Below are positions 10,715-47,458 of a stretch of 48,389 bases of DNA, in pieces. Under the pieces are notes generated by a model. That model was not told the origin of the DNA and did not search any database. It was given only the letters and a program-made list of their open reading frames with translations. Numbering within the stretch: the first letter of the stretch is position 1; each line of letters begins with the position of its first letter. Made by a program: the position numbers and the translations under genes. The stretch spans positions 1 through 48,389 of the IMG/VR virus record IMGVR_UViG_3300048924_000212; one strand, given 5' to 3'. The stretch comes from a virus.

Positions 10715-10897
10715 TCACTGCTGATCAGGCGGTCTGGCTTCGTTAGGCTCGGAGCCCAAACTCGTCAGCCGAAAACGCTCTTTCAAGATGGCGATGAGCT
10801 GCCCATTCATCGATCGTTCGTTGTTGCGTGCGTCCGCCGCAAGGGCGTCACGGATCTCAACAGGTAACCGCACCTGCATCTTCACTTCTTGCCTCAT
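10715..10897 (-). CDS. Arc-like ribbon-helix-helix repressor
   Basis: 60 residues. MQVRLPVEIRDALAADARNNERSMNGQLIAILKERF is, in two parts, the beta strand and the two helices of the Arc/Mnt DNA-binding fold. The ATG at 10897 has an excellent GGAGGTGAAA leader; an ATG 12 bases earlier would lack it. It is transcribed divergently from another ribbon-helix-helix gene at 11012. Such dimeric repressors bind short repeated boxes, and candidates lie in the shared intergenic region. Confidence 0.8.
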   Translation of the reverse strand: MRQEVKMQVRLPVEIRDALAADARNNERSMNGQLIAILKERFRLTSLGSEPNEARPPDQQ

Positions 10898-11011: not shown

Positions 11012-11377
11012 ATGGCCACCCAAGACGATTTTGTGAAGACGGCGCTGCGCCTGCCGCGCGAACTGCACGCCGAAATTCAGGCTGCAGCGCTGGCGGCTGG
11101 ACGTTCTATGAATGCCGAGATCATCGGACGGCTTCAGACGAAGGACGATGCCGCTAGCTTATTGCTGGAGCGCCTAAGGACTAGCGAAGACGAGCTGCTG
11201 AAAACGACAAAAAAACAGATCGAGGTCTTGTGGGGTGTAATCGATCGAACCGGCAGAGTGCTCGATCAGATGGACGTCGCTCTAGCCCGAGCCGAAACAT
11301 CCGCCGAGAGTGAGGCGCTTCAACAGAACATCGTGTTCTTGCGGGAATTGATCGAGACGATCAAGGCTCATCGCTAG
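11012..11377 (+). CDS. Arc-like ribbon-helix-helix protein with coiled-coil tail
   Basis: 121 residues. The Arc-type DNA-binding unit is at residues 5-45 (VKTALRLPRELHAEIQAAAL, then GRSMNAEIIGRLQ). A long helical tail (residues 50-121) probably forms a coiled coil for oligomerisation. No Shine-Dalgarno is visible and the -10 box sits just before the ATG. Its 3' end overlaps the convergent CI-like gene by 17 bp. It is a candidate regulator of the lysogeny decision, analogous in position to Arc/Mnt genes of the P22 immI region. Confidence 0.78.
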   Translation: MATQDDFVKTALRLPRELHAEIQAAALAAGRSMNAEIIGRLQTKDDAASLLLERLRTSEDELLKTTKKQIEVLWGVIDRTGRVLDQMDVALARAETSAESEALQQNIVFLRELIETIKAHR

Positions 11378-12038
11378 AACGCGGCAGCCGCCCATGCACT
11401 TTGACGAATTCGGAGATTCGGATCTTCCGGCGGGGAACGAAGCCGGAGACGTAGTACATCGACTCCAGTTCCGATTCGGCAAGCGTGACAATTAATTGTT
11501 CGTTCCACGCGCCAAGGCGGACGCCATTGCGGCGCGAAAGTAAGCGATAGAGCCCAAGCTCACCGGTCGTCCGTTTTACAAGGACGTCGTCTTCGATATC
11601 GGGATCGACGCTGGGCTCCACGATCGCAAAATCACCACGCATAAAGCGAGGCGCCATTCTGTCGTCCGGAACCGGAAACAGAAATTCATTTCCATTTGCC
11701 GGATCGATCTCATAGGCGTGCTCGCCGTCGACGCTGGGATCCCCCAACCGGCTGACCACATACCGTCGCGTCGCCTGGATATCTTGGAAGCGCTCAACGC
11801 GCTCAATTGTCCCGTCGAAGTTGGTCGTATAAATCTTGGGCGGCTTTAGTCCCATCAGCTCTTCGACGGTCGAATCTAGAGCAGCTGCGATCTTCGGCAA
11901 GAGGGTGGAGCTCTTGTTCCGCCCGCTTTCCAAATGGCCGATCGTCCCCTGGCTTACGCCGGAGTGCTTCGCGAGCTCTTCCTGTGACCAGCCTTTGCCG
12001 ATCCGAAGGGCAGTGATGTTCTTCCCGATATTACTCAT
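11361..12038 (-). CDS. CI-like repressor, XRE HTH plus inactive S24/LexA-type domain
   Basis: 225 residues, the likely prophage repressor. Residues 5-60 are an XRE helix-turn-helix (ITALRIGKGWSQEELAKHSG, then SQGTIGHLESGRNK). Residues about 118-215 align with the LexA/CI peptidase fold: PVPDDRMAPRFMRGDFAIVEP and DVLVKRTTGELGLYRLLSRRNG. The usual catalytic Ser before Met is Arg127, and the usual Lys is Tyr164. No Ala-Gly or Cys-Gly cleavage dipeptide is seen in the linker. Self-cleavage is therefore not expected. It is divergent from the Cro-like gene, and no Shine-Dalgarno precedes the ATG. Confidence 0.88.
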   Translation of the reverse strand: MSNIGKNITALRIGKGWSQEELAKHSGVSQGTIGHLESGRNKSSTLLPKIAAALDSTVEELMGLKPPKIYTTNFDGTIERVERFQDIQATRRYVVSRLGDPSVDGEHAYEIDPANGNEFLFPVPDDRMAPRFMRGDFAIVEPSVDPDIEDDVLVKRTTGELGLYRLLSRRNGVRLGAWNEQLIVTLAESELESMYYVSGFVPRRKIRISEFVKVHGRLPRSSDEP

Positions 12039-12111: not shown

Positions 12112-12327
12112 ATGGACGCTATCGACGTAATACGCGAACTCCGCAAGCGCGGTCTCTCGCAACAGACCATCGCCGCGCGCACTGGACTTTCCCAAGGCGC
12201 GATAAGCCACATCGAGACTGGTCGGCGAAAGAACGTGTTCGCGACGACCAGGGACAAGCTCGTCGACCTCTACAAAGAGGTGTGCGAGGAGAGTGCATCT
12301 GCGCCTGCCGAACAGGAGACAACCTGA
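12112..12327 (+). CDS. Cro-like XRE-family regulator
   Basis: 71 residues. A single helix-turn-helix unit: VIRELRKRGLSQQTIAARTG, then LSQGAISHIETGRRK. It is divergent from the CI-like repressor and is the first gene of the rightward early operon, the classical Cro position. ATG 12112 is preferred over GTG 12106. No ribosome site is visible, in line with a leaderless start. The stop overlaps the next start (TGATG). Cro-type proteins bind the same operators as CI with a different order of preference. Confidence 0.85.
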   Translation: MDAIDVIRELRKRGLSQQTIAARTGLSQGAISHIETGRRKNVFATTRDKLVDLYKEVCEESASAPAEQETT

Positions 12328-43781: not shown

Positions 43782-44081
43782 CTACGGCTGCTGCTCTCCA
43801 TCGTGCTCCCGGAAATCGGAGGGCGCGTTCAGGTCGATTTCCGCTCCGGCTTCGCGCATCTTTTCGAGGACAGCTTCGATGTCCTTCTGCTTGAGCACGA
43901 GTCGCGCCATGGCGAAAAACAGCATGTGCGCACTGACTTCCCGAGGTTGCGCTCCTCCGGTGTACTTCCGCCACTGCTTGTCGCTGGATACACCGAACAG
44001 ATCTGCCATCTGCGAGCCTTTGTACCCGAGCGTCTCTTTCAGCCTGGCGAGACTTTCGGTTGACGGCGGCGCGTAGCGCAT
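43782..44081 (-). CDS. Small HTH regulator of the conversion island
   Basis: 99 residues starting MRYAPPSTESLARLKETLGY. STESLARLKETLGYKGSQMADLFGVSSDKQWRKYTGG (in parts) is an XRE-like helix-turn-helix, followed by a helical C-terminus. A TTG further upstream is possible. It is the first gene behind a TTGACA/TAAATT promoter whose spacer holds a perfect palindrome, so autorepression of the island is likely. The stop lies 2 bp before the SGNH ATG. Confidence 0.78.
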   Translation of the reverse strand: MRYAPPSTESLARLKETLGYKGSQMADLFGVSSDKQWRKYTGGAQPREVSAHMLFFAMARLVLKQKDIEAVLEKMREAGAEIDLNAPSDFREHDGEQQP

Positions 44082-45805: not shown

Positions 45806-46270
45806 ATGAAGAAGCTCATGCTGCTCGCGGCAGGCCTTGTCGCGTCTGTCGCCATCCTCGCCGGCTGTTCGACGGCACAGCAACAACAGGTCGCAACCGT
45901 GGCGACGAACGTCCAGACGCAGGTCAATAAGGCCTGCGGATTTTTCGTGCCGATCGCTCTCGATGCAGAGACGCTGTACACCCTCGATCCGAAGGTGGAT
46001 CTCGCGATCGACGGGCTCAACGCGCTCTGCGACGCGAATGCTGCCGTCGATGCGAGCACGCTCCAAACGCTCGCGAAGACCACTATCCCTGCCGCGGTCA
46101 AGGCGCTCGCTGCTGTCCAGGGCATCCCGCCTGCCCTTGTGAAGGAGATCGGCGGCGCGCTCACGCTGTCGAATGTCGCCCTCAATAGTGCGGTAGCGAC
46201 GTATGCGCCTGCCGTCCCGACGGTGCCAGCATCGGCGCCGGCTGCCGCTTCTGGGGCGTCGACGCAATGA
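45806..46270 (+). CDS. Putative lipoprotein
   Basis: 154 residues. MKKLMLLAAGLVASVAILAG followed by Cys21 (LAGC lipobox) is a classical lipoprotein signal. The mature part is helical and alanine-rich, with two further Cys and a Pro/Ala/Ser tail (APAVPTVPASAPAAASGAS). It could be an outer-membrane spanin subunit by position, though no inner partner was found, or an exclusion factor. The end overlaps the phospholipase start. Confidence 0.78.
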   Translation: MKKLMLLAAGLVASVAILAGCSTAQQQQVATVATNVQTQVNKACGFFVPIALDAETLYTLDPKVDLAIDGLNALCDANAAVDASTLQTLAKTTIPAAVKALAAVQGIPPALVKEIGGALTLSNVALNSAVATYAPAVPTVPASAPAAASGASTQ

Positions 46271-47094
46271 GTAAGCCGATCCGTGTTGCACTGAGCGGAT
46301 CGGGCTTTCGCCTCGGCGCGCATCTGGGCGCGCTGCAGGCGATCTCCGATGCCGGCTACGAGGTGGTCGAGCTCGCGGGCACGTCGGGCGGCTCAATCGT
46401 GGCAAGCCTGTACGCGAGTGGTATGTCGCTCGAGGCGATGCGCGAGATGTGCATGACGCTCGACTGGTCGCCGATGATGAGCTTCTCGCCGTGGGCGCTC
46501 GTAACGAAACAGGCGTTGAGCTCCGGGAACGCGTTGCTTCAGTTCCTGCAAAAGCTCACCGATGGGAAGACGTTCGCGGATCTCGCGATCGACCTGAAGG
46601 TGATCGCATCCGATCTGCTGACAGAGAAGGAATACGAGTTCAGCAAGGCATCGACGCCGGCGGCTCCAGTGGCGCTCGCGGCTCGGGCTTCGGCATCGAT
46701 TCCGATCGTATTCGCGCCGGTTGCCTATGGTGAGGTTCTGTGTGTCGACGGTGGATGCACGGACAACCTGCCGGCCAGCAACCTGACGGTCGACGACGTG
46801 CCGCGAATCGGGATCTATCTCGAATCGGATGACGCTCCGTTGCTCCCGGGTGCCTATGGCCTTAAAACGCTCGCGCCGCGGATCATCGATCTGCTGCTGG
46901 CATCGAATGAGGCCTCGCATATCGCGCTTGACTCGAAGGATGGCGCGACGATCATCCGGGTGCCGACAGGCTACGCTAGCTCGCTGGACCGGAACATGGC
47001 GGCGTCGACACGTCAACGCCTCTTCAATGATGGCTACAGCTACACCATGGCCGTGCTCGAGCAGCTCACCGCTTCGGCGGTATCCCTCCCATAG
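46267..47094 (+). CDS. Patatin-like phospholipase
   Basis: 275 residues. Oxyanion loop SGSGFRLG (10-17), nucleophile elbow GTSGG with Ser40, and the dyad Asp161 in CVDGGCTDNLPAS. The fold is RssA/YchK-like. These enzymes remove fatty acids from phospholipids. It has no signal peptide and would act in the cytoplasm or at the inner leaflet. ATGA overlap with the lipoprotein gene suggests a lysis-associated or host-membrane effect. The 3' end overlaps the convergent SOS gene by 29 bp. Confidence 0.9.
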   Translation: MSKPIRVALSGSGFRLGAHLGALQAISDAGYEVVELAGTSGGSIVASLYASGMSLEAMREMCMTLDWSPMMSFSPWALVTKQALSSGNALLQFLQKLTDGKTFADLAIDLKVIASDLLTEKEYEFSKASTPAAPVALAARASASIPIVFAPVAYGEVLCVDGGCTDNLPASNLTVDDVPRIGIYLESDDAPLLPGAYGLKTLAPRIIDLLLASNEASHIALDSKDGATIIRVPTGYASSLDRNMAASTRQRLFNDGYSYTMAVLEQLTASAVSLP

Positions 47095-47344
47095 CGCCCA
47101 GTCGCACCTTCTCGGCTAGCATCCGGTCTGTGACCGTTTGCAACGCCTCCCGGACGTTCCCCTCCTGTTTCTGCCACAGGGCATACTGAGCCCTCAGTGC
47201 GTCGGCGTGCGCGGCGTTCATTACCTCGCGCGCGCGATGCACCTCGAGGATCAATCGGCGGACGTCCGGATCTCGATATCTCTTCCACAGTTCGCGCAGC
47301 TCCCCGTTCATCACAACAGGGAAATCGTCGGGCTTCAGTTTCAT
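47066..47344 (-). CDS. LexA-controlled small protein, antirepressor candidate
   Basis: 92 residues starting MKLKPDDFPVVMNGELRELW. Then WKRYRDPDVRRLILEVHRAREVMNAAHADALRAQYALWQKQEGNVREALQ (in parts): a mostly helical, charged small protein without a recognised domain. A near-consensus LexA box lies 12 bp upstream of the ATG. No clear Shine-Dalgarno is visible. Isolated, leftward and SOS-controlled at the end of a prophage, it fits an antirepressor such as Tum or Ant, or another induction factor. Function inferred from context. Confidence 0.72.
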   Translation of the reverse strand: MKLKPDDFPVVMNGELRELWKRYRDPDVRRLILEVHRAREVMNAAHADALRAQYALWQKQEGNVREALQTVTDRMLAEKVRLGAMGGIPPKR

Positions 47345-47355
47345 CGCGGGGTGAT

Positions 47356-47375
47356 TACTGTATATACGTACAGTA
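47356..47375. promoter_or_regulatory. LexA (SOS) box
   Basis: TACTGTATATACGTACAGTA, matching the enterobacterial consensus at 18 of 20 positions and containing CTGT-N8-ACAG with 7-bp perfect arms. It is placed to repress the leftward gene at 47344. Possible -10 hexamers (TATACT, TATACA on the minus strand) lie in or next to the box. Confidence 0.88.
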
Positions 47376-47422
47376 TAGCTGCCGCCTAGCAAAATACTTA
47401 TACACACTAGTACACATTTTTC

Positions 47423-47458
47423 TGGACATCGATCGATTTCGTGTGTATAAATACACAC
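47423..47458 (+). promoter_or_regulatory. hicAB promoter and operator
   Basis: -35 TGGACA (47423-47428), 17 bp, -10 TATAAA (47446-47451). The palindrome GTGTGTAT-aa-ATACACAC (47441-47458) covers the -10 box and the start of transcription. HicB-type antitoxins repress by binding such repeats. Confidence 0.75.

What the first reader, a model, noticed from the sequence alone, without database searches (positions are those of the whole stretch)
47066..47375. SOS-controlled small protein as proposed antirepressor of a non-cleavable prophage repressor
Seen: a LexA box at 18 of 20 consensus positions stands 12 bp before a lone 92-residue leftward gene, while the CI-like repressor at the other side of the phage lacks the self-cleavage dyad. 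Known: phage 186 Tum and Gifsy Ant are small LexA-controlled proteins that inactivate non-cleavable repressors. Inference: this unrelated small protein is the SOS sensor of the phage, giving a new antirepressor type.
Basis: partly seen in the sequence, partly recalled or inferred. Interest (0 to 1): 0.82.

Follow-up and report, generated by a model that had tools for sequence, protein, structure and literature searches.

The report
SOS-switched small protein, not phage antirepressor
A small phage gene that is switched on by DNA damage belongs to an unnamed protein family found on chromosomes, plasmids and phages of Burkholderia-type bacteria, usually beside a known DNA-damage gene, so it is more likely a general DNA-damage-response protein than a specific switch for waking this prophage.

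Summary
A LexA box (47356-47375, 18/20) ends 11 nt before a 92-aa leftward ORF (47066-47344). It is the only such box in the window, and none is expected by chance. The CI-like repressor (11361-12038) has lost the S24 Ser (to Arg), the Lys (to Tyr) and the Ala-Gly site. The antirepressor reading is not supported. The protein belongs to an unnamed helical family found on Burkholderiaceae chromosomes (syntenic 122-aa and tandem 215-aa forms), Pseudomonas and Caballeronia plasmids, and many phages. The LexA box is family-wide: 116/133 family ORFs against 16/1447 other ORFs in the same loci. The usual neighbour is SRAP (SOS response-associated peptidase). SRAP is present in 45/53 phage records with the gene and 5/29 without. 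ImuA, LigD or an AlkB-like enzyme flank other copies. There is no link to repressor type: S24 repressors occur in 3/53 records with and 1/29 without the gene, and the three have intact dyads. The closest prophages keep the gene but have unrelated repressors. Best explanation: a LexA-controlled DNA-damage-response protein linked to SRAP and carried by mobile elements; its biochemical activity is unknown. A Tum-like antirepressor role is not excluded (about 12%).

The parts
47066..47344 (-). 92-aa LexA-controlled ORF (P0001), core motif ELRxLW-x3-RDPxVRRLILE; predicted helices at residues 13-22, 26-57, 61-81
47356..47375 (.). LexA (SOS) box, 18/20 of consensus, ending 11 nt before the ATG; no Shine-Dalgarno sequence in the gap
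   Evidence: family-wide box
46267..47094 (+). patatin-like phospholipase gene, convergent with and overlapping the 3' end of the ORF; same arrangement in Paraburkholderia prophages
   Evidence: PF01734
47477..47659 (+). hicA toxin gene, neighbour on the far side of the box
   Evidence: PF07927
47716..48117 (+). hicB antitoxin gene
   Evidence: PF15919
11361..12038 (-). CI-like repressor with degenerate S24 domain (Ser to Arg, Lys to Tyr, Ala-Gly to Ala-Thr)
12112..12327 (+). Cro-like HTH gene divergent from the repressor
   Evidence: (phrog_6831)

Best explanation
The ORF is one mobile copy of an unnamed family of LexA-repressed, all-helical small proteins of the Burkholderiaceae/Pseudomonas DNA-damage response. 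Undamaged cells keep it off because LexA sits on the box just before the start codon; DNA damage and LexA cleavage switch it on. The protein then most likely works in DNA-damage tolerance or repair together with the SRAP (HMCES/YedK-type, abasic-site cross-linking) enzyme, probably as an adaptor or regulator. The window phage lacks its own SRAP, so its copy would work with the host's. Shown: family membership, family-wide LexA box, SRAP linkage, chromosomal and plasmid copies, no link to repressor type. Inferred: activity in damage tolerance, direct partnership with SRAP, and actual LexA binding.
For: Box 0-25 nt before a start codon in 116/133 family ORFs versus 16/1447 other ORFs of at least 200 aa in the same loci; box-to-start gap 7-20 nt in 118 family ORFs, 56 different box sequences. 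SRAP in 45/53 phage records with the gene versus 5/29 without; one box in a roughly 80-bp divergent intergenic region in KS9, Mana and Magia. Chromosomal SRAP/box/homologue, with LigD alongside, in Paraburkholderia sp. NMBU_R16 (L010); AlkB-like gene downstream with SRAP divergent (L162); ImuA next door. Core syntenic 122-aa and 215-aa forms. Plasmid copies, 89 records. PMC3765255 links SRAP to SOS operons, Ku/ligase and phages; PMC9436759 describes YedK SRAP acting on abasic sites; PMC3323433 predicted two LexA-controlled hypothetical genes in multi-chromosome beta-proteobacteria.
Against: The window phage has no SRAP, and about half of the chromosomal loci show none within 1.5 kb. The fold matches nothing, so the biochemical role rests on gene context. 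LexA binding was not measured. The loci are related to one another, so the association statistics overstate independence. Most phage relatives examined carry the longer 155-aa form, only 23-34% identical to P0001 in the core.
Confidence: 0.6

Rival explanations
1. Tum/Gifsy-Ant-like antirepressor: P0001, made on LexA cleavage, binds the non-cleavable CI-like repressor and lifts it from DNA, so that this prophage can be SOS-induced.
For: It is the only LexA-controlled gene of the phage and the repressor is predicted non-cleavable. Most phages carrying the family lack S24 repressors: 47 of 50; KS9 and Magia have 133- and 114-aa HTH repressors. LexA-controlled antirepressors outside the immunity region are known (PMC3121763).
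Against: Lack of S24 is the background in related phages without the gene (28 of 29). Three family-bearing phages have intact-dyad S24 repressors. Closest relatives have unrelated repressors while the small protein stays 49-65% identical. Copies on plasmids and at core chromosomal loci have no phage repressor nearby. No profile similarity to Tum.
Confidence: 0.12
2. SOS modulator analogous to DinI, RecX or PsiB: a small LexA-controlled protein that tunes RecA filaments or LexA cleavage, carried by chromosomes, phages and plasmids alike.
For: Same kind of distribution and control as DinI, which also rides on phages (Gifsy-2 dinI; Tum of phage 186 ends in a DinI-like domain, and PMC3121763). Small and all-helical, with no enzyme-like features.
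Against: No sequence relation to Tum's DinI part or to Gifsy-2 DinI; the SRAP linkage is more specific than this idea predicts.
Confidence: 0.2
3. SOS-induced moron with another role (for example defence, counter-defence or growth arrest) that only shares mobile islands with SRAP.
For: In the window the neighbours are patatin and hicAB, not repair genes; the gene sits at the variable end of the prophages.
Against: Core chromosomal copies with conserved synteny and a conserved LexA box; repair genes dominate among recognisable neighbours elsewhere.
Confidence: 0.08

Closest known systems
Tum of phage 186, GfoA/GftA of Gifsy prophages, AntC of N15 (LexA-controlled antirepressors)
   Same: Small phage protein under direct LexA control, far from the immunity region, in a phage with a repressor predicted not to self-cleave
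   Different: No profile similarity to Tum, no PHROG match better than E 0.018; the family is not phage-specific and is not tied to one repressor type
SRAP (SOS response-associated peptidase; YedK/HMCES, PF02586) SOS islands described by Aravind et al. 2013 (PMC3765255)
   Same: Same genomic islands; divergent gene pair sharing a LexA box in Burkholderia phages; imuA, LigD and AlkB-like neighbours
   Different: The small helical family is not SRAP; the cited paper's text, where searched, does not mention it
hypA / hypB, hypothetical genes predicted to be LexA-regulated in beta-proteobacteria with multiple chromosomes (PMC3323433)
   Same: LexA-controlled hypothetical genes of Burkholderia-type chromosomes; may be the 122-aa or 215-aa forms
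   Different: Identity could not be checked (supplements not readable here); phages, plasmids and SRAP are not linked to them in the passage read
DinI / YebG / PsiB (small LexA-controlled SOS proteins on chromosomes, phages, plasmids)
   Same: Size, LexA control and spread over chromosomes and mobile elements
   Different: Different sequence (DinI tested); predicted all-helical whereas DinI is alpha/beta (own knowledge); YebG and PsiB not compared

Membership tests
LexA-controlled antirepressors (Tum / Gifsy Ant type) | Gene under direct LexA control | tested here: met
   18/20 box, 11 nt before ATG, family-wide conservation; LexA binding itself not testable
LexA-controlled antirepressors (Tum / Gifsy Ant type) | Cognate repressor is not self-cleaving | tested here: met
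   Ser to Arg, Lys to Tyr, Ala-Gly to Ala-Thr
LexA-controlled antirepressors (Tum / Gifsy Ant type) | Sequence relation to a known antirepressor | tested here: not met
   hhalign with Tum: probability 0.3%; no PHROG hit better than E 0.018. Gifsy GftA itself was not compared with certainty
LexA-controlled antirepressors (Tum / Gifsy Ant type) | Co-occurrence with a matching, non-cleavable repressor type | tested here: not met
   S24 3/53 with the gene vs 1/29 without; the three dyads intact; unrelated repressors in closest prophages; plasmid and chromosomal copies
LexA-controlled antirepressors (Tum / Gifsy Ant type) | Binds the repressor and releases it from DNA | not testable with these tools
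   Needs protein binding or genetics; complex prediction not available
SRAP-linked LexA-controlled helical family (defined here) | Core motif ELRxLW...DPxVRRLILEV | tested here: met
   Alignments A6, A7; profile match E 1.9e-32 with own sequence in the profile
SRAP-linked LexA-controlled helical family (defined here) | LexA box ending 7-20 nt before the start codon | tested here: met
   11 nt
SRAP-linked LexA-controlled helical family (defined here) | SRAP gene adjacent | tested here: not met
   No SRAP in the window; typical of relatives but not universal
DinI family | DinI sequence | tested here: not met
   hhalign with Gifsy-2 DinI and with Tum's DinI part finds nothing
Named protein families (Pfam, NCBIfam, PDB) | Match over curated cut-off or significant E-value | tested here: not met
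   no fold match

The most novel reading that the evidence does not exclude
A previously undescribed, dedicated partner of the SRAP/HMCES abasic-site enzyme: a LexA-controlled two-gene damage-tolerance module, with a small helical protein and SRAP sharing one bidirectional SOS operator, that is core to Burkholderiaceae chromosomes and is repeatedly captured by phages and plasmids, sometimes without SRAP as in this window.
Probability: 0.35. Interest if true: 0.68.

Novelty: new variant of a known kind. Interest (0 to 1): 0.5.

Why it matters
LexA regulons outside E. coli still hold hypothetical genes with no assigned role. This one has a conserved operator-to-start geometry, a consistent neighbour of known chemistry (SRAP acts on abasic sites) and copies on chromosomes, phages and plasmids, including about 50-kb Pseudomonas aeruginosa plasmids. 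It gives a directly testable handle on how SRAP is used in bacteria, and it shows that 'LexA box plus small phage gene plus non-cleavable repressor' is not enough to call an antirepressor.

Tried and rejected
Single-protein scans with P0001 in viral contigs and genome contigs found nothing; the family only opened up through weak tblastn hits in phage Magia and plasmids. Fold searches for the short and long forms gave no significant match. Repressor-type association as support for the antirepressor idea was rejected after controls: S24 is rare in related phages whether or not they carry the gene. A Gifsy-2 ORF near dinI was compared, but it was not verified to be gftA, so nothing is drawn from it. 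hypA/hypB of PMC3323433 could not be tied to this family. No paper found in seven literature searches describes the family. tRNA, att-site and sigma-70 promoter scans around the gene gave nothing useful.

Full report
1. Observation. The window is a 48,389-bp IMG/VR virus record. The box TACTGTATATACGTACAGTA lies at 47356-47375 and matches the LexA consensus at 18/20 positions. It is the only match with up to 3 mismatches, and shuffles gave none. It ends 11 nt before the ATG of a 92-aa minus-strand ORF, 47066-47344, which overlaps a convergent patatin-like phospholipase gene by 29 bp. hicA and hicB lie beyond the box. The CI-like repressor 11361-12038(-) is an HTH_3 plus S24 protein. Aligned with a host LexA and three phage repressors that keep the dyad, it has Arg for the catalytic Ser and Tyr for the Lys. 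It also has Ala-Thr in place of the Ala-Gly found in LexA and two of those repressors.

2. What the protein is. It has no Pfam, NCBIfam or PDB match, and only insignificant PHROG hits. tblastn against phages found a 29-residue match in Burkholderia phage Magia, next to a gene annotated as SOS response-associated peptidase (SRAP). tblastn against plasmids found 89 records, mostly Pseudomonas, plus Caballeronia, Burkholderia and Paraburkholderia. Alignments gave a core motif ELRxLW...DPxVRRLILEV. Profile searches then found the family in 78 of 148 genomes of the Paraburkholderia-containing genus and in 89 of 350 genomes of the family Burkholderiaceae. Samples of the wider order and class gave only 3 of 399 and 1 of 274. 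Forms seen: short (82-110 aa, as in the window); long (about 155 aa, with an extra N-terminal domain), the usual phage form; a syntenic chromosomal 122-aa form; and a 215-aa form with two copies of the core.

3. Control by LexA is a property of the family. 116 of 133 family ORFs have a CTG-N10-CAG box 0-25 nt before a start codon, against 16 of 1447 other ORFs of at least 200 aa in the same loci. Over 118 boxed family ORFs the gap is 7-20 nt, with modes at 8 and 11-16, and there are 56 distinct box sequences. Many loci are related, so the counts are not independent events. Even so, the box persists across proteins that share only about a quarter of their residues with P0001 in the core.

4. 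Neighbours. In phages KS9, Mana, Magia and BgManors32 the gene is divergent from SRAP, and a single box lies in the intergenic region of about 80 bp. Among IMG/VR records, 45 of 53 with the gene have SRAP against 5 of 29 related records without it. In Paraburkholderia sp. NMBU_R16 the 67%-identical homologue sits on the chromosome between SRAP and LigD. Elsewhere it is followed by an AlkB-like dioxygenase with SRAP divergent (PF13532), or lies beside imuA. The 122-aa and 215-aa forms sit at conserved chromosomal places without phage genes. Prophages related to the window (L013, L164) keep the same convergent patatin arrangement, and L163 has patatin, SRAP and the homologue close together. The window itself has no SRAP.

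5. Test of the antirepressor reading. 47 of 50 family-bearing records have no S24-type repressor. That looked supportive, but related records without the gene are the same: 1 of 29 has S24. The same search does detect the window's degenerate S24 domain, so it is sensitive enough. The three family-bearing phages with S24 repressors have intact Ser/Lys dyads, and one of them (L154) is the closest match to the window repressor's C-terminal domain. In the five related prophages examined the homologue is retained: 58-65% identical in G003, G002 and G726, 49% in G1080, and a more distant copy in G934. The repressors differ: a 226-aa HTH protein without S24 in G003 and a 241-aa one in G002; a KS9-type repressor in G934; a KS9-like Cro in G726; short HTH proteins in G1080. 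No profile similarity to phage 186 Tum or to DinI was found. A protein tied to one repressor should not keep its core while repressors change, nor live on plasmids and at core chromosomal loci.

6. Structure. AlphaFold2 predicts three helices (residues 13-22, 26-57, 61-81; mean pLDDT 83) with no significant match in the PDB or viral libraries. The long form adds a small alpha/beta N-terminal domain, also without a match.

7. Mechanism. Most likely: LexA represses the gene by sitting on the operator next to the start codon; damage induces it; the helical protein works in damage tolerance with SRAP, the enzyme that cross-links to abasic sites (YedK: PMC9436759). Steps shown by sequence: operator, family, linkage. 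Steps inferred: LexA binding, SRAP partnership, activity. A RecA/LexA modulator in the style of DinI is the main rival. The Tum-like antirepressor remains possible in this phage because it is the only LexA-controlled gene there. Tum itself fuses an antirepressor to a DinI-like part (PMC3121763), so a dual role is conceivable.

8. Prior knowledge. Aravind and co-workers described SRAP islands and noted SRAP in Burkholderia prophages, suggesting a damage-sensing role (PMC3765255). Two LexA-controlled hypothetical genes, hypA and hypB, were predicted in multi-chromosome beta-proteobacteria (PMC3323433); they may be chromosomal members, but this could not be checked. No description of the family as such was found.

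Noticed in passing
47345-47355 and relatives L002-L147: LexA box lies 7-20 nt before the start codon in nearly all family members; no Shine-Dalgarno is visible in the gap of the few members read by eye, suggesting very short-leader or leaderless SOS mRNAs.
   Followed up: partly
L014-L083: Long form in Burkholderia phages has a conserved N-terminal domain (WxYxWEY...RT...IExTxxDRN) of unknown fold fused to the core.
   Followed up: partly
L159-L161: 215-aa chromosomal protein with two tandem copies of the core domain at a conserved locus.
   Followed up: partly
window 10715-10897 (-) and 11012-11377 (+): Two Arc-like (ribbon-helix-helix) small genes beside the repressor; this kind of protein has acted in other phage switches and could be an alternative control element.
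   Followed up: no
window 47395-47453: Inverted copies of TATACACAC around a GTGTGTATAAATACACAC palindrome before hicA, a likely HicB operator, about 65 bp from the LexA box.
   Followed up: no
window 43782-44081 (-): 99-aa protein of phrog_20491 (unknown function), conserved in related Paraburkholderia prophages (37-55% identity).
   Followed up: no
L005 3989-4240 and about 75 similar Pseudomonas plasmid records: LexA-boxed family member on roughly 47-60 kb P. aeruginosa plasmids near parB, korC and radC genes.
   Followed up: partly
L013 34-684: In P. piptadeniae the prophage end carrying the homologue lies about 9 kb from the host lexA gene.
   Followed up: no
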